Assembly: GCF_000025325.1 (NCBI RefSeq)
Contig: NC_013744.1
Coordinates: 186,001 to 250,000 of the forward strand
DNA length: 64,000 nt
Origin: Haloterrigena turkmenica DSM 5511
Lineage (GTDB): Archaea > Halobacteriota > Halobacteria > Halobacteriales > Natrialbaceae
Reading direction: 5' to 3'
A program made the translations under genes and the position numbers. Shown one piece after another: positions 3,659 to 15,689 of this stretch. How positions within the stretch are numbered: the stretch's first letter is position 1; every line of letters begins with the position of its first letter. Below the pieces are notes generated by a model. The model was not told where the DNA came from and made no database searches. It saw nothing but the letters and a program-made list of their open reading frames with translations.

Positions 3659-4303
3659 TCATCCGGTGGTCTCCTCCAGATCCGCTCGGTAATCGACGTC
3701 TCTCCTCACTCCCGAATCGTCGACGTCGATGCGGACGGCGTTCGCGTGGTCCTCGATGAGGCGGCGACCGCCTCGGTCGCCGGACACGGTCGCCAGAGCG
3801 TCGTAGTGCCGTCGACCGAACAGCACGGGGTTTCCGCGCTGTTCCTCGTACGTGGGGACGACGATCGTCCCGTCCCCGTTCGCGTACGCGGCGCGCAACG
3901 TATCGACGGTCGTCGGAGACACGAACGGCATATCACCGAGCATGAAAACGACGGCGTCCCAGTCCGCGTTCTCCGCGGCGTCGACGCCGACCCGGACCGA
4001 CGTACTCTGTCCCGCCGCGAAATTTTCGTTGGGCCGGACCGTGAGGTCCAGATCGGTGAGCGCCTCGTTCACTCGGTCCGCTTCGTGCCCGACGACGGCG
4101 ACGATATCGTCGACGGACGACCGACACAGCGTCTTTGCCGCCCGTCTGACGATTGGTGTTCCCTCGACCTCCGCCAGGAGCTTATTCCCGCCCTCGAAGC
4201 GGGTTCCCTCGCCCGCTGCGAGGAGCACTCCGCCAACTTCTGCCGATTCACTGTCGCCGTCCCGGCCGCCGGAAATGGGATTCGGCTCCGAACGATCTGG
4301 CAT
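3659..4303 (-). CDS. mocA: MocA-like molybdenum cofactor nucleotidyltransferase
   Basis: This 214-residue protein is a MobA/MocA-type nucleotidyltransferase. The nucleotide-binding loop LLAAGEGTRF lies at residues 27-36, with a conserved lysine in GGNK, and the metal-binding LGDMPF motif is central. MocA joins CMP to molybdopterin to make the cytosine dinucleotide cofactor used by many xanthine dehydrogenase-family enzymes; its homologue YgfJ belongs to the bacterial selenium-dependent hydroxylase cluster. It precedes no co-directional gene closely, but its neighbour is yqeC on the same strand 183 bases upstream. The choice between MocA and other family members rests on context. Confidence 0.85.
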   Translation of the reverse strand: MPDRSEPNPISGGRDGDSESAEVGGVLLAAGEGTRFEGGNKLLAEVEGTPIVRRAAKTLCRSSVDDIVAVVGHEADRVNEALTDLDLTVRPNENFAAGQSTSVRVGVDAAENADWDAVVFMLGDMPFVSPTTVDTLRAAYANGDGTIVVPTYEEQRGNPVLFGRRHYDALATVSGDRGGRRLIEDHANAVRIDVDDSGVRRDVDYRADLEETTG

Positions 4304-4486
4304 ACGATCACGTTCGTGACGTGCCGTAGTGATTCTTTTCCCGTCGCTGTTTCGTTCGACGAAGAGCGCTCCGAGCGACGGTGAGACGGCGCCTTTCCTC
4401 GGCGTTCGCTCGGGTTCGATAATCTGCGGTTCGACGGCCGGAGACGTGCATCCGGACCGCCGCCTCGGACGCTCCCCGATCCGCCG

Positions 4487-5248
4487 TCACGGGGCGTCGC
4501 TCTCGACGGCGAGACAAACGTCTCGTTCGAACGACGTCACGAACCCTCGAGCGAATCGAGTCGTGCTCTCGAGTGCGTGTTCGAGTATCCGTCGCGCCGT
4601 CTCCTGACGGACCGGCGTATCGGCCTTGTTGACGACGGGTGTAACGTCCGCACCGTCCGGAACGCGTTTCAGCCCACCGCGAGGACTGGCGAGTACGGTA
4701 CCGATCGCTTCGGGCGTGATCGCGTCGCCGACGGAGAGCCCCGTTATCGCTGCGACGCGTTCCGGACGGTGAACGACGGCGTCCGACAGCGGTTCGCCGA
4801 CGGCGAGAACCGAGGCCACCGGAACGACGCGGGTCGTCGCGTCGGGGACGACCGGTTCACCGGAGCCGGGAGCCTTGAACTCTCGAGTTCGAGCCCCGTC
4901 AGCTTTGACGAGGAGCCAGTCGAAGATCCCGCGGTCGAAAATCGAGGCGAGCGGTTCCGGATCGAAGCCGCGAACTTTCCGGGCGACTCGTTCCGGATCG
5001 GGAACCCAGTCTCTCGCGAACGCGACCGGCGGCTCGGTCTCGGTGAGCTTAGACGGCAGCGCCTCGACGTTCGCGACCGTCAGCGGGAGGTCGGGCGGCG
5101 GCATCTTCGTCGTCGTCGTGTACCCGACGTCATACCCGCGTTCGGTACCCTCCGTCGCGAGTCGGTGCATCGCGGTCTTCTTCCCGCCGGCGCCGACGAA
5201 CGAAACGAGCTCCCGGTCGCCGAGGCCCAGCGCATCGGACAGTCGCAT
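4487..5248 (-). CDS. yqeC: Selenium cofactor biosynthesis protein YqeC
   Basis: About 253 residues. A P-loop-like GAGGKKT sits at residues 19-25, followed by TTTTKM, and LLVKADGAR and FKAPGSGEPVVP further on, all characteristic of YqeC. YqeC co-occurs with YqeB and orphan SelD in genomes that make the labile selenium cofactor of molybdenum hydroxylases; its exact reaction is not known to me. ATG 5248 was chosen because residues from this point match the family start and a TATA-like box lies about 25 bases upstream, suggesting a nearly leaderless transcript. It is divergent from tusA-selD. Confidence 0.9.
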   Translation of the reverse strand: MRLSDALGLGDRELVSFVGAGGKKTAMHRLATEGTERGYDVGYTTTTKMPPPDLPLTVANVEALPSKLTETEPPVAFARDWVPDPERVARKVRGFDPEPLASIFDRGIFDWLLVKADGARTREFKAPGSGEPVVPDATTRVVPVASVLAVGEPLSDAVVHRPERVAAITGLSVGDAITPEAIGTVLASPRGGLKRVPDGADVTPVVNKADTPVRQETARRILEHALESTTRFARGFVTSFERDVCLAVESDAP

Positions 5249-5270
5249 ACCGTCACTGTGTCCCGGGAGC

Positions 5271-5279
5271 GAAAATAGG
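5271..5279 (-). promoter_or_regulatory. TATA-like box of yqeC
   Basis: Read on the minus strand this is CCTATTTTC, centred about 27 bases before the ATG at 5248. The spacing predicts transcription starting at or next to the start codon, as is common in haloarchaea. Confidence 0.5.
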
Positions 5280-5281
5280 TT

Positions 5282-5313
5282 TGTGCCGCGCGGGTCGCCC
5301 GCGGCGCGGCACA
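5282..5313. promoter_or_regulatory. Inverted repeat in the yqeC/tusA divergent promoter region
   Basis: A 10-base arm TGTGCCGCGC is repeated inverted (GCGCGGCACA) with a 12-base spacer. It lies immediately upstream of the yqeC TATA-like box and 43 bases before tusA, a fitting place for an operator controlling both transcripts. No regulator is identified. Confidence 0.45.
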
Positions 5314-5356
5314 TTGAGCCGACACTGTTTTGCGAGTCACTCGCATACATCGACGC

Positions 5357-5605
5357 ATGACGCGCGTGGATGTCAGCGGAGAAGTCTGTCCGCGGCCGGC
5401 GCTGATCGTACGCAAGCGGCTCTCCGAACTGGAGGTCGGCGACAGATTGCTGGTCCGTGGCGATTATCCCCCGGCGGAACGGAACCTCTGTCGAATGTGT
5501 CGGAAACGCGGATTCACCGTCGCGAAGACCGAAGACGGGACCGACGGGGACGCGTTCGAACTGCGGATCGAGGTGACCGAAGGCGCCGAGATACCGGAGG
5601 CCTAG
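5357..5605 (+). CDS. tusA: TusA/SirA-family chalcogen carrier protein
   Basis: An 82-residue protein with the TusA hallmark CPRPA, active cysteine C11, near the N-terminus of the compact fold. TusA-family proteins carry persulfide sulfur from a cysteine desulfurase to acceptors; some members have been linked to selenium metabolism. It has two further cysteines in LCRMCRKRG, which is unusual for such a short protein. The stop is only 3 bases before selD, so the two are co-transcribed. I infer that it carries sulfur or selenium for cofactor maturation; the sequence does not show which. Confidence 0.85.
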   Translation: MTRVDVSGEVCPRPALIVRKRLSELEVGDRLLVRGDYPPAERNLCRMCRKRGFTVAKTEDGTDGDAFELRIEVTEGAEIPEA

Positions 5606-5608
5606 CCG

Positions 5609-6646
5609 ATGACCGATCGTTCCGACGTCGCGGACGTCCGTCTGACCGAGTACGCCGACCTTCACGGGTGTTCCTGCAAGGTCGGCCGGAGCGACCTCGA
5701 CGACCTCCTTCGAGAGGCGGGCCTGACCGAATCCCGGGACGAACTCCTGTTCGGCGTCGGTGAAGACGCTGCCGCACGGCAACTGACCGACGATCTGGCG
5801 CTCGTTTCGACGGTCGATTTCTTCACGCCGATCATCGATGACCCGTACGACTTCGGCCGCGTCGCGGCGTGTAACGCCGCGAGCGACGCCTTCGCCACGG
5901 GGGCCGTCGACAACCTCGACTGTCTCGCCGTCCTCGGTCTCCCGCAGGAACTGACGACCGCTGCGCCGATGATCCTGGCCGGCATCGCCGACGCTATCGA
6001 CGGCATGGGCGGCGTAGTCGCGGGCGGCCACACGATCATCAGTCCGTGGCCGTTCGCCGGAGGCGCCGTCTCCGCGACCGCGCCGCCCGAGGAGCTACTG
6101 ACCTCACAGCGGGCGACGACGGGTGACCGTCTCTACCTCACGAAACCGCTCGGAACGCAGTCGGCGATGGGAGCGCTGCGCGTCTCGGACGACGAGTTCG
6201 TCGATGTCGTCGCGGAGGCCGCGGGACGTTCCGTCCGGACGATCGGCGACGAAGCGGTAGCCTGGATGACGACCCCGAACCGTGCCGCCGCAGTGGCCGC
6301 TCGCGACGTCGCGTCCGCGGCGACCGATATAACCGGGTTCGGCCTCGTCGGACAGGCGGAGGTGCTCGCCGACAACGCCGACGTCGGGATCGAGGTGACC
6401 CGTCTGCCCGTCATCGAGGGAACCGAGGGACTCTCCGCGCTGTTCGGCTACGGCCTCGAGGACGGCGAAAGTGCGGAGACGAGCGGCGGTTTGCTCCTGT
6501 CGGTTCCCCCGTCGCACACTGCGACTCTCGAATCGCGCCTCGATGACGCCGGCGTCTTCTACCGTCAGATCGGACGCGTCACCGATGGCGACGGCGTTTC
6601 GCTCCGCGATCCGACCGTAGAGCCGATCGCTCGAGCGGAACGGTAG
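5609..6646 (+). CDS. selD: Selenide, water dikinase
   Basis: A full-length 345-residue SelD, which makes selenophosphate from selenide and ATP. The catalytic loop HGCSCK gives C21 and C23 followed by the essential lysine. The dimer/ATP-binding core (FGVGEDAA, STVDFFTP, DDPYDFGRVAACNA) and the glycine-rich GGHTI region are intact. SelD normally serves selenocysteine or selenouridine synthesis. Here it lies among yqeB, yqeC and molybdenum hydroxylase genes with no selA or selB visible, the 'orphan SelD' arrangement known for the selenium-containing molybdenum cofactor trait. It converges on the XdhC-YqeB gene with a 12-base gap. Confidence 0.95.
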   Translation: MTDRSDVADVRLTEYADLHGCSCKVGRSDLDDLLREAGLTESRDELLFGVGEDAAARQLTDDLALVSTVDFFTPIIDDPYDFGRVAACNAASDAFATGAVDNLDCLAVLGLPQELTTAAPMILAGIADAIDGMGGVVAGGHTIISPWPFAGGAVSATAPPEELLTSQRATTGDRLYLTKPLGTQSAMGALRVSDDEFVDVVAEAAGRSVRTIGDEAVAWMTTPNRAAAVAARDVASAATDITGFGLVGQAEVLADNADVGIEVTRLPVIEGTEGLSALFGYGLEDGESAETSGGLLLSVPPSHTATLESRLDDAGVFYRQIGRVTDGDGVSLRDPTVEPIARAER

Positions 6647-6658
6647 GGACGCCGGTAG

Positions 6659-8239
6659 TCAGCGGAGTTTGAGAACGGCCTCGAGGACGCCGCCGCCGAG
6701 ACACAGCGCTTTATCCGAAATTTTCGTCGGGTCGACGTCGTCGCCGCGCGGATCGATGTCCCCGAGCTTCGTCCCGTCGCCGACCTCGAGTCCGCCGTGG
6801 ACGAGACCGCGCACGAGGCCGTCGATTTCCGCGTTCACGGCGCTGCCACCGACGTGACCTACGCTCTCGCCCGCCGAAACGAGGTCGCCGATCTCGACGG
6901 CGGGCTCCCACAGGCCCTCGTTCGGTGCGCGGAGGACCCGTTCGTGCGTGAAGCCGCGTCGTTCGCCCGGTTCGCCGTCGTACGGTCTCGCCCGTCCGTA
7001 GTAGAGGACGCGACCCAGTTCGTGCCCCCGATCCGTCTCGACGACGGCGTCGACGTCTTCGCCGGCTTCGAATCCGGGGCCGAGCCCGACGACCACGTCC
7101 GCGTCGTCGCGGCGGGTACCCGTATCGAGCCGCCCTTTCGCCAGTATCGCGTCGACGACGACGGCCGCGTCGAGCTCCGACGCGACCGACGCCTCGGGGT
7201 CCTCGAGGACCGGAACCGCGTCGTCCTCGAGGATTCCGATCGCCTCGTCCACGTCGGCCGCTCGCCGTCCGTCGACGCCGTCGATCGATACGTCGTCTTC
7301 GTACATCGCCGTCGCGAACGCCACCTCCCGCCGAACGACGGTCGGTCGCTCGACCTCGGTCACCACGACCGGATAGCCGGCCCGGTGCAGTCGGTAGACG
7401 ACTCCGCTCCCGAGGTCGCCCCCGCCCCGAACCACGACGAGGTCGTCGAGATTCAGCCGCGTCGCGCGCCGTCCGGTGACCCCGTATCGGTCCATGTTCA
7501 CCTCCGAGAGTATCGCCAGCGCGACGTCTTCCGGACCGCTCCCACCGAGATCGAGTCCAACGGGTGCTCTGACCCGTGCGAGTTCGCGGCGGCTGTACCC
7601 CTTTTCGGCGAGCGACTCGACGACGTGTTCCGTCTTCGTGTCGCTGGCGACGAGGCCGACGTACCCGGCGTTTCCGTCGAGCGCAGCGGCGACGGCGCGT
7701 TGATCGTACGTGCCACTCCGCGTCGCGACGGCGACCGACGTTTCTTCGGTCATCGGTAGCTCGGAGAGCACTTCTCCGTACTTCCCGTGGACGACATCCG
7801 TGTCGTCGGGAAACGCGTCCGGGTCCGCGTACTCCTCGCGGTCGTCGACTACCGTGACGTCGTAGCCCAACCGCTCCGCCAGCGGCGCGAGTTCGACGCT
7901 GATGTGGCCGGCGCCGGCGATGTACAGGCGCGCCCGTCCGCGAATACGTTCGATGAAGACGTCCATCGACCCGCCACAGACCATGCCGGTGTTACCGCCG
8001 GGTTCGAGTTCGTACGTCCGGACGCCGTCGTCGGACTTCCCCGCCAATACCGCTCGAGCGTCCTCCGTGGCGAGGTGCTCGACCGTTCCACCGCCGATCG
8101 TACCGTAGTCGCCGTCTGTGGTGACGAGCATCCGATCCCCGATGTCCCGGGGCGCGCTCCCGTCCTTGTTCACGATCGTCAGCATCGCGGCGGGCTCGCC
8201 GCTCTCGATCAGTTCGTTGACTCGCTCGAACACGCTCAT
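6659..8239 (-). CDS. XdhC-YqeB fusion for molybdenum hydroxylase maturation
   Basis: A 526-residue protein joins two maturation factors usually encoded separately. Residues 1 to about 255 are XdhC/CoxI-like: GMVCGGS (C88) and a Rossmann segment YIAGAGHISVELA at 106-118. Residues from about 260 to the end are YqeB-like, beginning LVVVRGGGDLGSG. XdhC proteins hold Mo cofactor and promote its sulfuration; YqeB is a marker of selenium-dependent molybdenum hydroxylases. ATG 8239 was chosen because upstream residues do not match the family; it overlaps the dsrH-like stop by 4 bases, so translation is coupled. The fusion supports direct cooperation between the two steps. Confidence 0.88.
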   Translation of the reverse strand: MSVFERVNELIESGEPAAMLTIVNKDGSAPRDIGDRMLVTTDGDYGTIGGGTVEHLATEDARAVLAGKSDDGVRTYELEPGGNTGMVCGGSMDVFIERIRGRARLYIAGAGHISVELAPLAERLGYDVTVVDDREEYADPDAFPDDTDVVHGKYGEVLSELPMTEETSVAVATRSGTYDQRAVAAALDGNAGYVGLVASDTKTEHVVESLAEKGYSRRELARVRAPVGLDLGGSGPEDVALAILSEVNMDRYGVTGRRATRLNLDDLVVVRGGGDLGSGVVYRLHRAGYPVVVTEVERPTVVRREVAFATAMYEDDVSIDGVDGRRAADVDEAIGILEDDAVPVLEDPEASVASELDAAVVVDAILAKGRLDTGTRRDDADVVVGLGPGFEAGEDVDAVVETDRGHELGRVLYYGRARPYDGEPGERRGFTHERVLRAPNEGLWEPAVEIGDLVSAGESVGHVGGSAVNAEIDGLVRGLVHGGLEVGDGTKLGDIDPRGDDVDPTKISDKALCLGGGVLEAVLKLR

Positions 8240-8481
8240 ACGAAGTTTTTCACCTCGTTTTCCACGATCATCTCTATCAAATCGCCGTACGTGATCCGCT
8301 CGATCTCGTCCGGAAGATCGACGCCCCGTACGTCGACGTCCTTCTCGACGGCGTAGAGTTCCGAACCGAGGTCGGGAGAGAGGAACACGCCGTCCTGGAT
8401 GAGGACGACGGCGGCGTCCGGATCGTCCGCCGCGGTTCGAAGTCCGATATCGGCCATGGGTTCGTCTATCAGGTACAGCAT
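8236..8481 (-). CDS. DsrH/TusB-like sulfur relay subunit
   Basis: An 81-residue protein beginning MLYLIDEP, with VVLIQDGVFL and LYAVEKDVDVRGV matching the DsrH/TusB fold in size and order. It is the third gene of a DsrE-DsrF-DsrH-like set and overlaps the XdhC-YqeB start. It has no cysteine, so if it works in a relay it would be structural. DsrH proteins form hexamers with DsrE and DsrF. The direction of transfer and the chalcogen are unknown here. Confidence 0.72.
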   Translation of the reverse strand: MLYLIDEPMADIGLRTAADDPDAAVVLIQDGVFLSPDLGSELYAVEKDVDVRGVDLPDEIERITYGDLIEMIVENEVKNFV

Positions 8482-8483
8482 GG

Positions 8484-8837
8484 TCAGAAGTCAAGCGTGC
8501 AATCGGCTTCCCGAATGAGCGTCGTCACGTCACCGCCGGAACGAACGCTCACGTCGTGGGCGATCTCGTCGTGGGCGATCTCTCTCTCCGCCATCGCTGC
8601 GGCGTCGACGATCATCTCTCCGTCCTGGTCCCGCAGATCGGCGACGTGTCCCGGTAAGTTCAGCGCGTCTCGATCCACGTCCGATCGGGCGGCGTACGCG
8701 CCGTCTTCCGTGAAGACCACGGTGACGTCGTGGTGGTCGAATCCCGCGGCGACGCCCCGCGCCGCCCGCATCCCTTCCGGGACGTGAACGCGTCCGTACG
8801 GCGCTCGAGTCAGTAACACGACGACGTCGCGTTTCAT
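8484..8837 (-). CDS. DsrF/TusC-like sulfur relay subunit
   Basis: A 117-residue DsrE-superfamily protein. The first strand VVVLLTRAPYGRVHVPEG and the central VVFTEDGAYAA match TusC/DsrF, as does the C-terminal LIREADCTLDF. It lies between the DsrE-like and DsrH-like genes, overlapping the former by 4 bases and 2 bases from the latter, so all are read as one transcript. Members form an E2F2H2 hexamer that passes sulfane sulfur. Function here is inferred from the trio and its neighbours. Confidence 0.75.
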   Translation of the reverse strand: MKRDVVVLLTRAPYGRVHVPEGMRAARGVAAGFDHHDVTVVFTEDGAYAARSDVDRDALNLPGHVADLRDQDGEMIVDAAAMAEREIAHDEIAHDVSVRSGGDVTTLIREADCTLDF

Positions 8838-9205
8838 AGCGATATCACTCGGTCGGCTTCACCGATCATGTCCGCCAGATCCGGGAGGAGTCCGACCTCG
8901 ACGCCGTCCGGGTAGTCGTTCGGCGCGTCGATACCGCGAGCGTCGACGCAGAGGCCGCAACAGATCACCTCCGCACCGTCGGCGACGAGTTCCTGAAACT
9001 TCTCCGTCGGCATCTCGTCGTACAGCCCGCTGTCCGAACAGTCCGGGAACGTCTGATCCTCGACCGGAACGAGCGCCCCGTCGAGGTAGTGAAAGAAGGT
9101 GACCTCGTGGCCCTTATTCAGCGCCGCTCTCCCGAGTTCGTACGCCGTTCGCCAGCGTTCGCTGTCGAACGGACCACCGGTCAGGAGGAACCCAATGGAA
9201 GCCAT
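8834..9205 (-). CDS. DsrE/TusD-like sulfur relay subunit
   Basis: A 123-residue protein starting MASIGFLLTGGPF and aligning by eye with DsrE/TusD. The expected active cysteine lies in EVICCGLCVDARG, giving C82, C83 and C86, so the thiol-bearing subunit of the trio is preserved and even enriched in cysteine. It is the promoter-proximal gene of a dsrE-dsrF-dsrH-xdhC/yqeB transcript. No DsrC/TusE partner gene is visible in the window, which argues against a plain sulfur oxidation or tRNA thiolation role and for delivery to a cofactor; this is inference. Confidence 0.8.
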   Translation of the reverse strand: MASIGFLLTGGPFDSERWRTAYELGRAALNKGHEVTFFHYLDGALVPVEDQTFPDCSDSGLYDEMPTEKFQELVADGAEVICCGLCVDARGIDAPNDYPDGVEVGLLPDLADMIGEADRVISL

Positions 9206-9226
9206 GCTCTAGCATAGCGGTGTCTC

Positions 9227-9237
9227 TATAATAATAG
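9227..9237 (-). promoter_or_regulatory. TATA-like box of the dsrE-F-H-xdhC/yqeB operon
   Basis: On the minus strand CTATTATTATA lies about 27 bases before the DsrE-like ATG at 9205, in an otherwise GC-rich region. This fits a leaderless or very short-leader transcript. Confidence 0.55.
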
Positions 9238-9316
9238 TTCGGTCGGCAACAGTACGGATCACGATACCCGCGCCGAGAGCTGGTGTTTCGGACGTCCGCT
9301 TCGCGTCGACCGGCTC

Positions 9317-11776
9317 CTACCCGTCCCGTTCCTCGAGGGCCCGTTTGATATCGTCGGCCGTGATGGGTAGGGAGTTGACCCGGACGCCGACGGCGTCTCG
9401 GACGGCGTTGCTGAGAGCCGGTGGAACGCCGTTCGTCGGGAGTTCGGCGATCGATTTCGCACCGAACGGTCCGGTCGGTTCGTGCGTTTCGACGATGATC
9501 GTCTCCATCGGCGGGTGGTCCGTCGTCCGCGGCATGCCGTACTGGCGGAAACCGAGTACTTCGGGGTTCCCCTCCTCGTCGAACGTCAGTCCGCCGCTGG
9601 TCGCGAATTCGAGGCTCATGTGCTCTCCCCCCTCGATCTGCCCCTCGACGAGCGCGGGGTTGATCGCGACGCCGCAGTCGGCGGCGAACACCATCTTATT
9701 AATGTCGTATTCGCCGGTTTCCTCGTTCACGGTCACGTCGACGAACTGGGCGCCGTACGGCGGCGGACTCTCGTCCGTCGAGTGATTTCCCTTCCCGAGA
9801 ATGTGTTCGCGGTCGTCGTGGCCGTAGGTCGCCTCGTACCCGATCTCCTCCAGCGAAACGCTCTCGTCGGTTACCTCGCTGTACACCTCGCCGTCGCCCG
9901 TCCGCAGGTTCTCGACGGGTTCGTCGAGCATCTTCGATCCCCAGTGTACCAGCCGTTCCCTGGCGTCTTCGGCGGCCTCCTTGACGGCCTGGCCGCTGAT
10001 GTAGGTCGTCGAGGAGGCGTACGCGCCGTAGTCGAACGGCGTCAGATCGGTGTCCGATGAGATCACGACGATATCCGTCGGCTCGCACCCGAGAACCTCC
10101 GCGGCGACCTGGCTGAACATCGTGTCGGAGCCGGTGCCGGTGTCGACGCCGCCGACCTGGAGGTGAAACGAACCGTCCTCGTTCATCTTGATCTGGGCCG
10201 CACCGAGCTCCCTCCCGGCGACGCCGCTTCCCTGCGCGATGAGCGCCACGCCGACGCCGCGGGAGCGGTGCGCCTCCTCGGGTCGGTCGAGGTCGTCGTA
10301 ACCGATGGCCTCCTTCCCGCGTTCGATGCACTCGCGGAGCCCGCAAGAACGTATCTCTCGGGTGAACTTCTCGTCGTCTTTCAGGATGGCGACGTTCCGG
10401 TCGACGTCGCCCTCGCGAACGGCATTGCGTTCGCGGAATTCGATCGGGTCGAGGTCGAGCCGGCGAGCGACCTCGTCCATGTGCGCCTCAACCGCGAAGT
10501 GGCCCTGCGGCGCGCCGTAGCCGCGCATCGCCGCGCCCATCGGAAGGTTCGTGTGGACGACGTCCCCCTCGAACCGGACGTTCGGAACGCGCGGATACAG
10601 CGGCAGCGGCTTCGTTCCAACGTTGTTCGCGACGGTCATCCCATGGGTGCCGTACGCCCCCGAGTTCGATAGCGCGTACAGATCCATCGCCTCGATCGTT
10701 CCGTCGTCGTCCACCGCCGTCCGCATGCGCATCCGCATCGGGTGGCGGAACCGGAGCGCGTAGAACTCCTCGCGGCGGGTCATCTCCAGTTTGACCGGCT
10801 TGTCCGCCGCCAGGTGGAGCGCGAACGCGATCGGTTCGATCGCCATCTCCTGTTTCGCGCCGAACCCCGCGCCGATGCGCGGTTTCGTGACCCGGACGTC
10901 GCGGATGGGTACGTCGAACAGGTGTGCGATCTGGCGTCGGGTGTGGAACGGGACCTGCGTCGCGGTGATAAACGAGTAGCGGTCATCCTCGTCCGTGTGG
11001 ACGATCGTGGTGTGCGGTTCGGGGACGCAGTGTGACTGGTACGGCGTCTCCCACTCCGTCTCGATCACCCGGTCGTCGTCCGCTCGTTCGAACGCCCGCT
11101 CGACATCGCCCCGCTCGCCCTCGAAATGAGACTCGAGGTTTCGCTCGTAGTCGGCGCCGCGCTGTTTGTTCTCGACCTCCGCGGGGTCGAACAACTGTGG
11201 AGCGTCCGGCTCCATCGCCTCCTCGGGGTCGAGGACGGGCTCTCGCTCCTCGTATTCGACGTCGATCGTCCGGGCGGCGCGGTCGGCCGTCTCCGCGTCT
11301 TTCGCGGCGATCGCCGCGACGGGGTCGCCGACATACCGAACGTGTTCGCGGAGTACGCGCAGATCCCAGGGACTCGGTTCGGGATAGGACTGGCCCGAAC
11401 TCGAGTACGCCTTATCGGGGACGACGTCGTCCCACGGGGTGATCACGGCGTAGACGCCGTCCATCGCTTCGGCCTCGCTCACGTCGATGTCGCGGACGTA
11501 GCCGTGCGCGATGTCGCTTCGGATCACTTTCCCTTCGGCGAGTTCGGGGAAGCGATCGCGGTAATCGGCCGTGTAGCGGGCCTCTCCGGTGACGATTTTC
11601 CGCGCGTCGTCCTTCTCAACGTTCTCGGTCAGATGTTCGCGTTCCTCCCGGGGTTTCCGGTCGTCCTCGGCCACCTCGTCCTCCCCCGGAGACGCGTCCG
11701 TTTCCGAGGCCACCTCCTCCGCCCGAACGCCGTCGGGTCTATCGTTCCGTCCCTGCGTCTCTTCCAGGTTGCTCAT
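9317..11776 (-). CDS. Molybdenum hydroxylase, molybdopterin-binding subunit (copy 1)
   Basis: An 819-residue xanthine dehydrogenase-family catalytic subunit. After an acidic, low-complexity N-terminal stretch of ~50 residues come DDARKIVTGEARYTADY (the usual domain start), GAGFGAKQ at 302-309, AMRGYGAPQ around 417-424, GGVDTGTGSDTMFSQ, and the C-terminal GAKSIAELP with the catalytic glutamate E778. The active-site loop is xanthine dehydrogenase-like rather than the cysteine-bearing loop of CO dehydrogenase. Its start overlaps the stop of the 2Fe-2S subunit by 4 bases. Substrate is not shown by sequence; purine hydroxylation is inferred from ade, the permease and the maturation genes. Confidence 0.9.
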   Translation of the reverse strand: MSNLEETQGRNDRPDGVRAEEVASETDASPGEDEVAEDDRKPREEREHLTENVEKDDARKIVTGEARYTADYRDRFPELAEGKVIRSDIAHGYVRDIDVSEAEAMDGVYAVITPWDDVVPDKAYSSSGQSYPEPSPWDLRVLREHVRYVGDPVAAIAAKDAETADRAARTIDVEYEEREPVLDPEEAMEPDAPQLFDPAEVENKQRGADYERNLESHFEGERGDVERAFERADDDRVIETEWETPYQSHCVPEPHTTIVHTDEDDRYSFITATQVPFHTRRQIAHLFDVPIRDVRVTKPRIGAGFGAKQEMAIEPIAFALHLAADKPVKLEMTRREEFYALRFRHPMRMRMRTAVDDDGTIEAMDLYALSNSGAYGTHGMTVANNVGTKPLPLYPRVPNVRFEGDVVHTNLPMGAAMRGYGAPQGHFAVEAHMDEVARRLDLDPIEFRERNAVREGDVDRNVAILKDDEKFTREIRSCGLRECIERGKEAIGYDDLDRPEEAHRSRGVGVALIAQGSGVAGRELGAAQIKMNEDGSFHLQVGGVDTGTGSDTMFSQVAAEVLGCEPTDIVVISSDTDLTPFDYGAYASSTTYISGQAVKEAAEDARERLVHWGSKMLDEPVENLRTGDGEVYSEVTDESVSLEEIGYEATYGHDDREHILGKGNHSTDESPPPYGAQFVDVTVNEETGEYDINKMVFAADCGVAINPALVEGQIEGGEHMSLEFATSGGLTFDEEGNPEVLGFRQYGMPRTTDHPPMETIIVETHEPTGPFGAKSIAELPTNGVPPALSNAVRDAVGVRVNSLPITADDIKRALEERDG

Positions 11777-12318
11777 CGCGATCGCCCCTCCTCACGCGGA
11801 CACGTCGATGGGGTCCGGGACGGGATGCGTTCCCCGCCGTCAGTCGCCGCGGGAGACTCACCGTCCATCCGGTCCGCGGCGTCGAGGACCGCTTCGACGA
11901 TCTTTTTGTAGCCGGTACACCGGCAGAGGTTGTCTTCCAGCGCCTCTCGCACCTCCGTTTCGGTCGGATCGGGATTCTCCTCCAGTAACGCCTTCGACCG
12001 CATGATCATCCCGGGGATACAGAAGCCACACTGGAGCGCCGAGTTGTCCACGAACGCCCGCTGAATCGGGTGGAGGTCGTCCTGCGTTCCCAGTCCCTCT
12101 ATCGTTTCCACCGTCGCTCCGGCGACGTTCGCGACCGGCGTGACGCAGGACATCGCCGGTTCGCCGTCGATCTGGACCGTACACATCCCGCACGCGCCAG
12201 TGTCGCAGCCGCGTTTCGGGCCGGTGTATCCGTTCCGCCGTAGTACATCGAGCAGGATGTCCGATTTCGCCGCTTCGAACGTCCGCTGTCGACCGTTCAG
12301 TTCCAGTTCCAATTGCAT
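11773..12318 (-). CDS. Molybdenum hydroxylase, 2Fe-2S subunit (copy 1)
   Basis: About 181 residues with both clusters of the family. The plant-ferredoxin-type site is complete at C38, C43, C46 (GCDTGACGMC) and C58; the second is QCGFC (C97, C100) and LCRC (C132, C134). It passes electrons from the Mo centre. ATG 12318 gives the normal family N-terminus; an upstream alternative would add 17 atypical residues. A TATA-like CTATTTAGG on this strand lies at 12373-12381. No FAD-binding middle subunit gene is present, so the final electron acceptor must be another protein or cofactor. Confidence 0.93.
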   Translation of the reverse strand: MQLELELNGRQRTFEAAKSDILLDVLRRNGYTGPKRGCDTGACGMCTVQIDGEPAMSCVTPVANVAGATVETIEGLGTQDDLHPIQRAFVDNSALQCGFCIPGMIMRSKALLEENPDPTETEVREALEDNLCRCTGYKKIVEAVLDAADRMDGESPAATDGGERIPSRTPSTCPREEGRSR

Positions 12319-12703
12319 GGGGCTCACCGTGGGAGAGATACTCTCCCTTCGTCCGATCATCACTCCCACGTACCTAAATAGCTGCTGAGGTTTTTCGATG
12401 AATAGGCGTGAAAATAACTGTGGTCGCCGCGTCGAACGGACGATAGCGGCGAAGACGGCCCTCTACGGTCGGATTCGTTCGAGCGGCTCTCGTTGCGTGC
12501 GCTACGGCAACACGAACGAAGCGTGACTGCACCCACGACTTCAGTCGCGGGCTTCTCTCACTGAAGATAACGCCGTGCCGCTCGGATCGGGATCACCCAC
12601 AGCGGACACATTGGACAAACGTCGACACAGGTTCCACGCGGACGGAACACACCGATACAGCGGTAGCGAGGCGAAAGCCCACGGCTTTCGTCGGAGGCGG
12701 ACG
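12319..12703. other. Intergenic region with two hairpins between the two hydroxylase operons
   Basis: No credible gene is seen. A hairpin with one mismatch lies at 12532-12551 (arms CCCACGACT and AGTCGCGGG), a form often found at the ends of haloarchaeal IS200/IS605 elements. A perfect 8-base stem with a CAC loop lies at 12672-12690 (CGAAAGCC/GGCTTTCG), just past the stop of copy 2, and may act in termination. The stretch between them may be an insertion-element remnant, but no protein fragment could be recognised. Confidence 0.5.
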
Positions 12704-15151
12704 TCAGCGCTCCTCGAGCGCCGCCTTGATCTTCTCGGCGGTGATGGGCATCTCGTTGATACGCACGCCGACGGCCTCGCGGATCGCGTTGCTCAGCGCG
12801 GGCGGCACCGTGTTGGTCGGCACTTCCGCGACCGATTTCGCGCCGAAGGGTCCCGTCGGTTCGTGCGTCTCGACGAGAATGCTCTCGATAGGCGGCGTCT
12901 CCGTCGCCGACGGAAGTCCGTACTGGTCGAAGTCCGAGACTTCTGCGCGGCCCCGCTCGTCGACGGTGATTCCCTCGCTAACGGCCATCTCGAAGCTCAT
13001 GTGATTGGCGCCCTCGACCTGCCCCTCCGCCATTCCGGGGTTGATCGCGACGCCGCAGTCGACGGCGACGACGAGTTCGTTGACCTCGAACTCGCCGGTC
13101 TCCTCGTCGACGGTCACGTCGACGAACTGTGCGGCGAACGGCGGCGGACTCTCCTCCGTGGAGTGGGTCCCCTTGCCGAGGATGTGTTCACGATCGTCGT
13201 GGCCGTACACCGACTCGTAGCCGATGTCCTCGAGCGTGACCGCGTCGCCGGTCTCCTCACTGTAGACCTCGCCGTCGCGCGTCTCCAGATTCTCCGCGGG
13301 TTCGTCGAGCATCCGCGACGCCCAGTCGAGGATGCGCTCCTTGGCGTCCTCGGCCGCCTTCTTCACCGCCATCCCGCTGATGTAGGTCGTCGAGGAGGCG
13401 TACGCGCCGTAGTCGAACGGCGTGTTGTCCGTGTCGGAGGATTTGACGATGATGTCGTCCTCGTCGCACCCGAGGACTTCGGCGGCGATCTGGATGAACG
13501 CGGTGTCCGCGCCCGTGCCGATGTCGACGCCGCCGACTTGCAGGTGGAACGACCCGTCCTCGTTCATCATGAGCTGCGCGGCGCCGAGTTCGTCGCCGGC
13601 GACGCCGGTCCCCTGTGCCGACAGGGCCATGCCGATACCGCGGTGGAGATGGTCCTCCGCCGGCTGCTCGAGTTCGTCCCACCCGATGGCCGCCTTCCCG
13701 CGCTCGACGCACTCGTCGAGGCCGCAGGAGCGGATCCGACGCTCCGCGCCCTCGCCGCCCATCATCCCGGCGATTTCGTCCAGGTCGCCGACCTCCATGT
13801 AGTGATCGCGTCGGAATTCGATGGGATCGAGGTCGAGATCGCGAGCGACCTCGTCCAGGTGGCCCTCGAGCGCGAGCGTCCCCTGTGGCGCGCCGTACCC
13901 GCGCATCGCGCCGGTTTGCGGCGTGTTCGTGTGGACGATATCCGCCTCGAAGCGGGCGTTGGGTACCTTCGAGTACAGCGGCATCGGTTTGCTGCCCACG
14001 TTACCGGCGACCGTCATGCCGTGGCTCCCGTACGCGCCGGTGTTCGAGAGCGCGTACAGGTCGATGGCTTCGATTTCACCGTCGTCGGTGACCGCCGTAC
14101 GCGCACGGACCGTCATCGGGTGGCGCGAGCGCATCGCGTAGAACTCCTCGTCGCGAGAGGCCTCGTACATGACGGGACGATCGGCCGCGAGCGACAGCGC
14201 GAGCGGGAGCGGTTCGACGACCATCGCCTGCTTGCCGCCGAAGCCGCCGCCGACGCGCGGTTTCTTGACGCGAATGTCCCGGATCGGAATATCGAACAGG
14301 TGCGCCAGCTGGCGGCGGGTGTGGTTCGGTACCTGCGTGCTCGTGACGAGCACTTTCCGGTCGTCCTCGTCGGTGTACGCGAGCGACGTGTGTTTCTCGA
14401 TTTGCGCGTGGGACTGGCGGATCGTCTCCCACTCGGTCTCGTGGACGTGTACGTCGTCGCGGTCGATCGCGGCGTCGACGTCGCCGATCTCGCCCTCGAT
14501 GTTGGACATCCGGTTACGATCGTAGTCGTGTCCGACGATCTTGTTCTCGACCTCGTCGTCGTCGAACAGTTGCGGCGCGTCCTCGTCGAACGCTTCCTCG
14601 GGGTCGACGACGTGATCGTACTCCTCGTACTCGACCTCGATGGATTCGACCGCGGACGCCGCAGCGGCCGCGTCCTCGGCCGCGACCGCCGCGATCGGAT
14701 CGCCGACGTAGCGGACGTGCTCGTTGAGCACGTTCATGTCCCACGGACTCGGTTCCGGGTAGGACTGACCGGCGCTCGTGTACTTCGCGTCCGGAGCGGC
14801 GTCGGACCACGGCGTGAGGACGGCGTACACGCCGTCCATTTCCTCGGCCTCGTCCGTCTCGATGGCCGTAACACGGCCGTGCGGAACCGTGCTGCGAACG
14901 ACCGCAGCGTGAGCGAGGTCCGGAAACCGCTGTTCGTAATCCGCCGTGTACTTGGCTTGACCGGTGACGAGCTTTCGGTCGTCGAACTTTTCCGCCGGTC
15001 GGGAGACGCTCTTTCGATCCTCCGGGGCTTTGTCGTTGTTCTCCGGTTCGTCCCACTCGAGGGGGTGTTCCTCGAACTCCTTCGGTTCTTTCGAGGCCGG
15101 CTCCGACGCGGTACCGCCGTCCGTCTGTGGGTCGTTCGGTTCGTCACTCAT
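12704..15151 (-). CDS. Molybdenum hydroxylase, molybdopterin-binding subunit (copy 2)
   Basis: An 815-residue paralogue of the subunit encoded at 9317-11776, with the same layout: acidic N-terminal tail, DDRKLVTGQAKYTADY, GGGFGGKQ, AMRGYGAPQ, GGVDIGTGADTAFIQ and GAKSVAEVP with catalytic glutamate near residue 776. ATG 15151 overlaps the 2Fe-2S gene by 8 bases; a GTG at 15160 is a poorer alternative. The two copies lie in tandem on the same strand with separate small subunits, so they probably act on different substrates or steps (for example hypoxanthine and xanthine, or another oxopurine). Which one carries selenium cannot be told from sequence. Confidence 0.9.
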   Translation of the reverse strand: MSDEPNDPQTDGGTASEPASKEPKEFEEHPLEWDEPENNDKAPEDRKSVSRPAEKFDDRKLVTGQAKYTADYEQRFPDLAHAAVVRSTVPHGRVTAIETDEAEEMDGVYAVLTPWSDAAPDAKYTSAGQSYPEPSPWDMNVLNEHVRYVGDPIAAVAAEDAAAAASAVESIEVEYEEYDHVVDPEEAFDEDAPQLFDDDEVENKIVGHDYDRNRMSNIEGEIGDVDAAIDRDDVHVHETEWETIRQSHAQIEKHTSLAYTDEDDRKVLVTSTQVPNHTRRQLAHLFDIPIRDIRVKKPRVGGGFGGKQAMVVEPLPLALSLAADRPVMYEASRDEEFYAMRSRHPMTVRARTAVTDDGEIEAIDLYALSNTGAYGSHGMTVAGNVGSKPMPLYSKVPNARFEADIVHTNTPQTGAMRGYGAPQGTLALEGHLDEVARDLDLDPIEFRRDHYMEVGDLDEIAGMMGGEGAERRIRSCGLDECVERGKAAIGWDELEQPAEDHLHRGIGMALSAQGTGVAGDELGAAQLMMNEDGSFHLQVGGVDIGTGADTAFIQIAAEVLGCDEDDIIVKSSDTDNTPFDYGAYASSTTYISGMAVKKAAEDAKERILDWASRMLDEPAENLETRDGEVYSEETGDAVTLEDIGYESVYGHDDREHILGKGTHSTEESPPPFAAQFVDVTVDEETGEFEVNELVVAVDCGVAINPGMAEGQVEGANHMSFEMAVSEGITVDERGRAEVSDFDQYGLPSATETPPIESILVETHEPTGPFGAKSVAEVPTNTVPPALSNAIREAVGVRINEMPITAEKIKAALEER

Positions 15152-15689
15152 CGGGATCACCGCCGTGAGCGGTGCAGTCGGTCTGGTCCGGTTCGATCCG
15201 CGAGCCGCCGTCGGCCGCGACCGACCGCTCGCCGCGCATTCGGTCGGCCGCGTCGAGGATCGCTTCGACGGGTTTCTGATAGCCGGTACATCGGCAGAGG
15301 TTATCGTCGATGGCTTCGCGCACCTCGGCTTCGGTCGGGTCAGGATTGTCCGCGAGCAGCGACTTGGCCGCTATTATCATCCCGGGAATGCAGAAGCCGC
15401 ACTGAACGGCGAAGTGGTCGACGAACGCCTCTTGAATCGGATGGAGGTCGTCCTGCGTGCCGAGATTCTCGATCGTCTCGATCTCCGCTCCCTCCGCGCT
15501 CCGGGCGTCCACGCCGCAGGCCATCTTCACTTCGTCGTCGACGAACACTTTCGACGCCCCGCACGCGCCGCCGTCGCAGCCACACTTCACGCCCGTGTAG
15601 CCGTTCCGTCGCAGTACCGTCGCCAGATCCTCGTCCGATTCGACCTCCACGGTCGTCGGTTCGTCGTTGATCGTTAGTTGGATTTCCAC
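15144..15689 (-). CDS. Molybdenum hydroxylase, 2Fe-2S subunit (copy 2), atypical cluster
   Basis: This 181-residue protein is homologous to the small subunit of copy 1 and keeps the second cluster (QCGFC, C97 and C100; LCRC, C132 and C134). The first, ferredoxin-like site reads KCGCDGGACGASK: C38 and C43 are present, the expected third ligand at position 46 is serine, and an extra cysteine appears at 36; C58 is kept. The serine codon is unambiguous (TCG). The cluster may use C36 or serine as ligand, changing its potential. The gene leads a two-gene operon with its molybdopterin subunit. Confidence 0.88.
   Translation of the reverse strand: MEIQLTINDEPTTVEVESDEDLATVLRRNGYTGVKCGCDGGACGASKVFVDDEVKMACGVDARSAEGAEIETIENLGTQDDLHPIQEAFVDHFAVQCGFCIPGMIIAAKSLLADNPDPTEAEVREAIDDNLCRCTGYQKPVEAILDAADRMRGERSVAADGGSRIEPDQTDCTAHGGDPDE

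What the first reader, a model, noticed from the sequence alone, without database searches (positions are those of the whole stretch)
5357..9205. TusA plus DsrE/F/H trio embedded in the SelD-YqeB-YqeC maturation cluster: a candidate selenium or sulfur relay to Mo cofactor
tusA is 3 bases from selD, and dsrE-F-H-like genes overlap the start of the XdhC-YqeB gene. The DsrE-like subunit keeps its active cysteine (C82/C83/C86). There is no DsrC/TusE in the window, so the relay would have to end on another acceptor. XdhC-YqeB, which handles the Mo cofactor, is the natural one. I know of no described DsrEFH role in selenium cofactor assembly.
Basis: partly seen in the sequence, partly recalled or inferred. 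Interest (0 to 1): 0.85.

Follow-up and report, generated by a model that had tools for sequence, protein, structure and literature searches.

The report
Archaeal selenium-linked TusA/DsrEFH sulfur-carrier genes
Some salt-loving archaea keep a set of four sulfur-carrier genes fixed inside the gene cluster that builds selenium-containing molybdenum enzymes, so these carriers probably handle selenium there, a role only suspected so far for a different bacterial carrier called YedF.

Summary
TusA (5357-5605+) lies 3 bases before SelD. A DsrE-F-H trio (9205-8236-) runs, by 4-base overlaps and a 2-base gap, into XdhC-YqeB. The organism is a haloarchaeon with an orphan SelD. In 292 Halobacteria genomes the trio, YqeB and SelD occur in exactly the same 22 genomes. 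Gene order E-F-H-XdhC/YqeB><SelD-TusA is invariant, even where the hydroxylase genes have moved. Relatives of the hydroxylase (61-64% identical) occur in purine islands without SelD, YqeB or trio. No DsrC was found in 145 Halobacteria genomes. None of 74 bacterial yqeB loci shows the trio; many of those genomes carry YedF, a TusA-DsrE fusion already linked to selenium. Corrections: C82 is not invariant; C83 (the TusD Cys78 position) and C86 are. The cluster itself was published in 2008 (Haloarcula marismortui), TusA included; the trio was not discussed in the text I read. Most likely this is a CxxC-type DsrEFH/TusA chalcogen relay dedicated to the selenium-cofactor pathway, a functional counterpart of bacterial YedF. 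Whether selenium enters at SelD or is handed to cofactor on XdhC-YqeB is undecided. Selenium handling itself is inferred, not shown.

The parts
5357..5605 (+). tusA-like gene, 82 aa, CPxP motif (C11) and a second invariant Cys (C48); 3 bases upstream of selD
   Evidence: PF01206 63 bits; C11 and C48 in 23/23 sequences
5609..6646 (+). selD, orphan selenophosphate synthetase, GCSCK active-site motif
   Evidence: TIGR00476 273 bits over cut-off 125; C21 and C23 invariant in 23
6659..8239 (-). XdhC-YqeB fusion, proposed Mo-cofactor chaperone / selenium-cofactor maturation protein; start ATG at 8239 overlaps the dsrH stop by 4 bases
   Evidence: TIGR03309 352 bits over cut-off 220, PF02625 and PF13478; start read from the frame listed
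8236..8481 (-). dsrH/tusB-like gene, 81 aa, no conserved Cys
   Evidence: PF04077 25.7 bits over 24.4
8484..8837 (-). dsrF/tusC-like gene, 117 aa, no conserved Cys
   Evidence: PF02635 43 bits; groups with TusC, support 87/90
8834..9205 (-). dsrE/tusD-like gene, 123 aa, active motif C83-G-L-C86; most conserved protein of the cluster
   Evidence: PF02635 76 bits; C83 aligns with TusD Cys78; mean pairwise identity 88%
4487..5275 (-). yqeC, selenium cofactor biosynthesis protein
   Evidence: TIGR03172 191 bits over cut-off 73
3659..4303 (-). MocA/YgfJ-like molybdenum cofactor cytidylyltransferase
   Evidence: PF12804 140 bits; TIGR03310 139.5 bits, below its cut-off of 186
9317..11776 (-). Mo hydroxylase large subunit 1 (xanthine dehydrogenase family), upstream of the trio on the same strand
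   Evidence: PF02738, PF20256, PF01315
11773..12369 (-). [2Fe-2S] subunit 1 of the Mo hydroxylase
   Evidence: PF01799, PF00111
12704..15160 (-). Mo hydroxylase large subunit 2
   Evidence: PF02738, PF20256, PF01315
15144..15689 (-). [2Fe-2S] subunit 2 of the Mo hydroxylase
   Evidence: PF01799, PF00111

Best explanation
TusA and the DsrE-F-H heterotrimer form a cysteine-bound chalcogen relay dedicated to making the labile selenium ligand of the neighbouring xanthine-dehydrogenase-type Mo hydroxylases. Proposed steps: (1) selenium is loaded as a perselenide (or mixed persulfide) on TusA Cys11; (2) it passes to DsrE Cys83, with Cys86 as resolving partner, F and H being structural; (3) it is delivered inside the SelD / XdhC-YqeB maturation module, where SelD activates it and XdhC-YqeB installs it on the Mo cofactor. 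The set is the haloarchaeal counterpart of bacterial YedF (TusA+DsrE in one chain). Shown here: gene content, order, co-occurrence, purifying selection, conserved C83/C86, no DsrC found, orphan SelD. Inferred: the heterotrimer, steps 1-3, and that the atom is Se. Branch point: I rate entry at SelD slightly ahead of direct hand-over to XdhC-bound cofactor (about 55:45 given that the relay idea is right).
For: Same 22 of 292 Halobacteria genomes carry YqeB, SelD, DsrE and DsrF over threshold. Order E-F-H-XdhC/YqeB><SelD-TusA is kept in 22/22, while hydroxylase, ade, YqeC and MocA positions vary (L101, L102), and the trio is also in 5 further haloarchaeal MAG loci. The 14 haloarchaeal plasmid records with the trio are exactly the 14 with a close (82% or more) hydroxylase; 61-64% hydroxylase relatives in Halalkalicoccus and Salinigranum purine islands have no selD, yqeB or trio within about 9 kb. 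Two genomes hold only fragments of the trio, with the rest of the module gone (L105 keeps bits of F and of XdhC-YqeB, L106 a bit of E). E is the most conserved protein of the island (dN/dS 0.04-0.18). C83 aligns with TusD Cys78. DsrC 0/145. Se genetics: C. difficile yqeB mutant behaves like selD mutants on xanthine and urate (PMC11448449). TusA to DsrEFH type II sulfur transfer on one DsrE Cys, F and H not loaded by TusA, shown in vitro (PMC13293266). TusA/TusD genes respond to selenium in M. maripaludis (PMC11097638). YedF, TusA+DsrE, is tied to SelD (PMC2432076, PMC5322559) and sits 17 bases from yqeB in Anaerotignum (L192).
Against: Nothing here shows selenium chemistry. The island is often on a plasmid or secondary replicon and looks inherited as one block, so 22 of 22 is not 22 independent events. 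No independent lineage was found with the trio beside yqeB: none in 74 bacterial yqeB loci, many on short contigs. The closest non-haloarchaeal trio (Desulfobacteraceae, L244) lies with Hdr-like, lipoate-binding and lipoate-ligase genes, i.e. a sulfur context, though a selD is on the same contig. YqeB itself offers no invariant Cys.
Confidence: 0.65

Rival explanations
1. The reader's specific model (a sub-branch of the best explanation, so the two confidences overlap): the relay ends on XdhC-YqeB, so DsrE hands Se (or S) straight to Mo cofactor held by XdhC, by-passing DsrC/TusE.
For: Trio is translationally coupled to XdhC-YqeB (4-base overlap) and stays with it when the hydroxylase moves. 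NifS4 sulfurates cofactor on XdhC and XdhC has a highly conserved Cys82 (PMC2997495); the XdhC half here has one invariant Cys in 23/23 (C87 in the numbering, C88 from the ATG at 8239). DsrC not found.
Against: TusA is coupled to SelD, not to XdhC-YqeB. YedF and M. maripaludis TusA/TusD act in organisms that make selenoproteins or selenouridine, which points upstream. Bacterial YqeB loci do without the trio.
Confidence: 0.3
2. It is a sulfur relay: it supplies sulfur for Mo cofactor (dithiolene or Mo=S) or tRNA thiolation, and selenium is handled by SelD, YqeB and YqeC alone.
For: All biochemically tested TusA/DsrEFH relatives that I read about carry sulfur (PMC3397948, PMC13293266); E. coli TusA feeds Mo-cofactor synthesis (PMC5372717). 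The nearest bacterial trio is in a sulfur-type cluster.
Against: 0 of 270 SelD-lacking haloarchaea have an intact trio, although relatives with this hydroxylase family exist without it. A general sulfur supply should not track SelD so exactly.
Confidence: 0.2
3. Selenium sequestration or detoxification: TusA/DsrEFH buffers reactive selenide or selenite made during uptake and only indirectly helps the cofactor.
For: CxxC pair in DsrE; a second tusA of this genome sits by a phosphonate-type ABC transporter; a phosphate-type transporter near the H. marismortui cluster was proposed to carry selenate (PMC2276186).
Against: Tight linkage to XdhC-YqeB, and loss together with the module, fit a biosynthetic part better.
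Confidence: 0.1
4. Hitch-hiking: the trio is a passenger in a mobile purine-catabolism island.
For: The island is on plasmids or secondary contigs and patchy.
Against: Strong purifying selection, highest conservation in the island, invariant coupling.
Confidence: 0.04

Closest known systems
YedF (TIGR03527), bacterial TusA-DsrE fusion of selenium metabolism (also FdhU)
   Same: A TusA module plus a DsrE-like module with CGxC, encoded beside selD; in Anaerotignum 17 bases from yqeB (L192). Present in at least 15 of 50 bacterial yqeB genomes examined.
   Different: One chain, no DsrF/DsrH; reported absent from archaea (PMC5322559). The haloarchaeal E is on its own branch, not inside YedF; TIGR03527 matches the TusA only, far below its cut-off.
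DsrEFH type II (PMC13293266; cable bacteria, sulfate reducers, some archaea)
   Same: Syntenic E-F-H with tusA, one active Cys in DsrE, low identity to type I. Window trio is 40% identical (concatenated) to L244 and 33% to a Desulfobacterota trio with tusA (L248), 28% to E. coli TusDCB.
   Different: Described with reductive dsrAB, dsrC, yeeE or qmo; the main text mentions neither haloarchaea nor selenium. Here with SelD, XdhC-YqeB and no DsrC.
DsrEFH type I / TusBCD
   Same: Three-gene order E-F-H (D-C-B); E C83 aligns with TusD Cys78; F groups with TusC.
   Different: NCBIfam TusD/C/B cut-offs not met; second Cys in E; no Cys in H; no DsrC/TusE acceptor.
SelD-YqeB-YqeC selenium cofactor cluster (Haft and Self 2008; Zhang et al. 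2008)
   Same: Same cluster as H. marismortui pNG700, including TusA pNG7238 and the XdhC-YqeB fusion.
   Different: The text and tables I read do not discuss the DsrE-F-H genes.
XdhC-NifS4 sulfuration of Mo cofactor (R. capsulatus)
   Same: A persulfide carrier acting on cofactor held by XdhC (PMC2997495).
   Different: Donor is a cysteine desulfurase and the ligand is sulfur.

Membership tests
Selenium cofactor (SDMH) trait | SelD, YqeB and YqeC together, with Mo hydroxylase genes | tested here: met
   SelD, YqeB and YqeC over curated cut-offs; hydroxylase subunits by Pfam
Selenium cofactor (SDMH) trait | Orphan SelD: no SelU, no SelB | tested here: met
   SelU none; SelB matches all below cut-off; SelA not searched
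Selenium cofactor (SDMH) trait | Labile selenium in the hydroxylase | not testable with these tools
   needs 75Se labelling
DsrEFH / TusBCD complex | Three syntenic genes E-F-H with a conserved active Cys in E | tested here: met
DsrEFH / TusBCD complex | Curated TusD/TusC/TusB model cut-offs (TIGR03012/03010/03011) | tested here: not met
   21.6, 27.2 and 29.9 bits against 89, 94 and 49
DsrEFH / TusBCD complex | Partner DsrC/TusE | tested here: not met
   PF04358 absent from own genome and 144 other Halobacteria; positive control rings in E. coli
DsrEFH / TusBCD complex | Heterohexamer or heterotrimer that transfers sulfur | not testable with these tools
   the model of E alone was low confidence (pLDDT 55); no complex was modelled
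DsrEFH type II | Under 30% identity to type I, synteny with tusA, one active Cys in E | tested here: inconclusive
   28% concatenated identity to E. coli TusDCB and 33-40% to Desulfobacterota trios, but the published HMMs were not available and tusA is separated from the trio by XdhC-YqeB and selD
DsrEFH type II | Co-occurrence with reductive dsrAB | not tested
   dsrAB was not searched in this genome; only dsrC was, and it was not found
YedF | TusA and DsrE-like domains in one protein, TIGR03527 over cut-off | tested here: not met
   separate genes; TIGR03527 29 bits against 110 on TusA, none on DsrE; separate branch in the tree

The most novel reading that the evidence does not exclude
A DsrEFH complex has been recruited as a selenium (perselenide) transferase that hands selenium to Mo cofactor on XdhC-YqeB without any DsrC/TusE. 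It would be the first DsrEFH with a different acceptor and the first identified selenium carrier of the selenium-cofactor trait.
Probability: 0.27. Interest if true: 0.82.

Novelty: new variant of a known kind. Interest (0 to 1): 0.6.

Why it matters
How selenium reaches the Mo cofactor of selenium-dependent hydroxylases is the least understood use of selenium in microbes (PMC11448449). A carrier set that, among haloarchaea, occurs only with this trait, in organisms that appear to have no other use of SelD, is a clean genetic handle: deleting it in Haloarcula should not be confused with loss of selenoproteins or selenouridine. It also points to a TusA/DsrEFH relay that must end on something other than DsrC, and it predicts that YedF and this set do the same job.

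Tried and rejected
Chance proximity: rejected by identical distribution in 292 genomes (Fisher p about 1e-33; strongly inflated by shared ancestry) and invariant order. Trio tied to the hydroxylase rather than to YqeB/SelD: weakened by L101/L102, where hydroxylase genes are elsewhere, and by Halalkalicoccus and Salinigranum. Trio as a general part of yqeB loci in all life: rejected, none in 74 bacterial loci, with the caveat of short contigs and HMMs built on haloarchaea. Haloarchaeal DsrE as a split YedF by descent: not supported by the tree. YqeB cysteine as acceptor: no invariant Cys in the YqeB domain. E. coli yqeB has no trio nearby. The structure model of E was poor (pLDDT 55); its best PDB match was YchN, but weak, so it is not used as evidence. 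The YqeB half folded well but gave no informative PDB match.
Full report
WHAT IS THERE. The window lies on a 698 kb contig of a haloarchaeal genome of 5.44 Mb. Reading from 3659 to 15689 the genes are: MocA-like (-), YqeC (-), TusA (+), SelD (+), XdhC-YqeB fusion (-), DsrH (-), DsrF (-), DsrE (-), and two pairs of Mo-hydroxylase large and [2Fe-2S] subunits (-). TusA ends 3 bases before SelD. On the minus strand DsrE/DsrF overlap by 4 bases, DsrF/DsrH are 2 bases apart, and DsrH overlaps XdhC-YqeB by 4 bases if the ATG at 8239 is used (my calls numbered the fusion from 8236, so its residue numbers are one too low there). Adenine deaminase (906-2573) and the neighbouring genes make this a purine-catabolism island. 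TusA, SelD, YqeB and YqeC are secure; DsrE/F/H are clear by Pfam but below the NCBIfam TusD/C/B cut-offs, i.e. divergent.

ORPHAN SELD. The genome has no SelU and no SelB over its cut-off. So SelD here most likely serves only the selenium-cofactor trait, as proposed for H. marismortui (PMC2276186, PMC2432076).

'Trio found equally often away from selD/yqeB' is false in haloarchaea. In a sample of 292 Halobacteria, YqeB over cut-off, SelD over cut-off, full-length DsrE and full-length DsrF fall in exactly the same 22 genomes. Only two other genomes gave anything: fragments. G130 keeps the first 34 residues of DsrE next to a hydroxylase gene, and G073 keeps bits of DsrF and of XdhC-YqeB (L106, L105); both look like remains of a deleted module. 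In all 22 loci the order E-F-H-XdhC/YqeB facing SelD-TusA is kept; hydroxylase genes, adenine deaminase, YqeC and MocA vary more. The trio is also present in 5 further haloarchaeal MAG loci; a sixth (L161) is cut off by its contig end. Caveat: this is one island passed down and around, so 22 is not 22 independent cases.

A NATURAL CONTROL. On haloarchaeal plasmids, the 14 records with the trio are the same 14 that have a close relative (82% or more) of hydroxylase subunit 2. Three further records have 61-64% relatives; the two I opened (Halalkalicoccus jeotgali, Salinigranum marinum) sit in purine islands with no selD, yqeB or trio within about 9 kb. So the trio follows selenium genes, not this kind of hydroxylase as such. 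This is the best argument against a plain sulfur supply.

SELECTION AND ACTIVE SITE. DsrE is the most conserved protein of the island (88% mean pairwise identity; XdhC-YqeB 80%, SelD 76%, hydroxylase large subunits 82-86%), with dN/dS 0.04-0.18 against the window. C83 aligns with E. coli TusD Cys78. C83 and C86 are invariant; C82 is not. DsrF and DsrH have no conserved Cys; TusA has C11 (CPxP) and C48. In A. vinosum DsrH-Cys20 is needed in vivo but not for transfer in vitro (PMC3397948); here it is absent.

RELATIVES ELSEWHERE. Of 80 yqeB loci from the genome collection, 74 are bacterial and none shows the trio by HMMs built on the haloarchaeal proteins; many contigs are short and these HMMs could miss distant members. 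In 50 of these bacterial genomes PF02635 occurs in 40; in at least 15 the locus examined encodes a protein of about 200 aa with both TusA and DsrE parts, i.e. YedF. In Anaerotignum (L192) yedF lies 17 bases upstream of yqeB. The closest trio outside haloarchaea is in a Desulfobacteraceae MAG (L244; E 45%, F 31%, H 47% identical), with TusA, two lipoate-binding-type proteins, lipoate-ligase-type and HdrB/C-type proteins, and a SelD-like gene on the same contig (these names are my reading of the sequences). A second Desulfobacterota trio with TusA (L248) is 33% identical. Other archaea of the phylum have E-F-H-like sets with a CxxC in E at 53-71 bits. In a tree of short sequences, haloarchaeal DsrE plus L244 form one branch (92/91) separate from TusD, YchN and YedF, and DsrF groups with TusC (87/90); deep forks are weak.

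MECHANISM. Known: TusA loads one sulfur on DsrE of DsrEFH type II, not on F or H, and DsrEFH passes it on to DsrC (PMC13293266). No DsrC was found here, so the endpoint must differ. Two candidates remain. (a) SelD: TusA is coupled to selD; YedF occurs with SelD in selenocysteine- and selenouridine-using bacteria (PMC2432076, PMC5322559); TusA/TusD transcripts of M. maripaludis rise 4.5-4.6 log2-fold on selenium depletion (PMC11097638). (b) Mo cofactor on XdhC-YqeB: the trio is coupled to that gene, NifS4 sulfurates cofactor bound to XdhC, and XdhC has a highly conserved Cys82 (PMC2997495); the XdhC half here has one invariant Cys, while YqeB has none across bacteria and archaea. In C. difficile yqeB is as necessary as selD for growth on urate and xanthine, while yqeC deletion had no obvious effect (PMC11448449). 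I rate (a) slightly above (b). That the carried atom is selenium is inference.

NOVELTY. The cluster and its TusA were published in 2008; the YedF fusion gives a precedent for TusA+DsrE in selenium metabolism; DsrEFH type II was published in 2026. I found no paper in the held open library that describes DsrEFH in the selenium-cofactor cluster; supplementary files and subscription papers were not readable. So: a new variant of a known kind, with a directly testable role.

Noticed in passing
own genome C2:178362-178595 (L104:8362-8595+), about 7.4 kb before the window start: A second tusA-like gene (CPQT motif) beside a phosphonate-type ABC substrate-binding protein, an ABC ATPase and a Rid-family gene; L117 (15514-15762) has a similar second tusA about 3 kb from the first. 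Possibly tied to uptake of a selenium compound.
   Followed up: partly
L105 (G073) and L106 (G130): Broken remains of the module: a DsrF piece with an XdhC-YqeB piece, and a 34-residue DsrE piece beside a hydroxylase gene; suggests loss of the selenium module with the hydroxylase retained in L106.
   Followed up: partly
L244 (Desulfobacteraceae MAG): An orthologous-looking E-F-H trio with TusA in a cluster of lipoate-binding, lipoate-ligase and Hdr-like genes, with a SelD-like gene on the same contig.
   Followed up: partly
G340:C188 (L246), G319:C172 (L204), G335:C137, G312:C3, G298:C187 (L209): DsrE-family reading frames with one in-frame TGA, possible selenocysteine-containing DsrE-like proteins.
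   Followed up: no
L192:3731-4348 and 4366: Anaerotignum: yedF (TusA+DsrE) directly upstream of yqeB, a bacterial parallel of the haloarchaeal arrangement.
   Followed up: partly
L163:11868-12113: Sphaerochaetaceae MAG: a stand-alone tusA-like frame about 1.1 kb beyond yqeB on the same strand.
   Followed up: no
window 3659-4303: The MocA/YgfJ-like protein scores below the curated TIGR03310 cut-off (139.5 against 186), so the archaeal cytidylyltransferase is divergent.
   Followed up: no
model of window 6659-8236: The YqeB half folds with mostly high confidence yet has no clear structural relative in the PDB beyond weak matches; the C. difficile paper notes a likeness of YqeB to a biotin carrier protein (PMC11448449).
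   Followed up: partly
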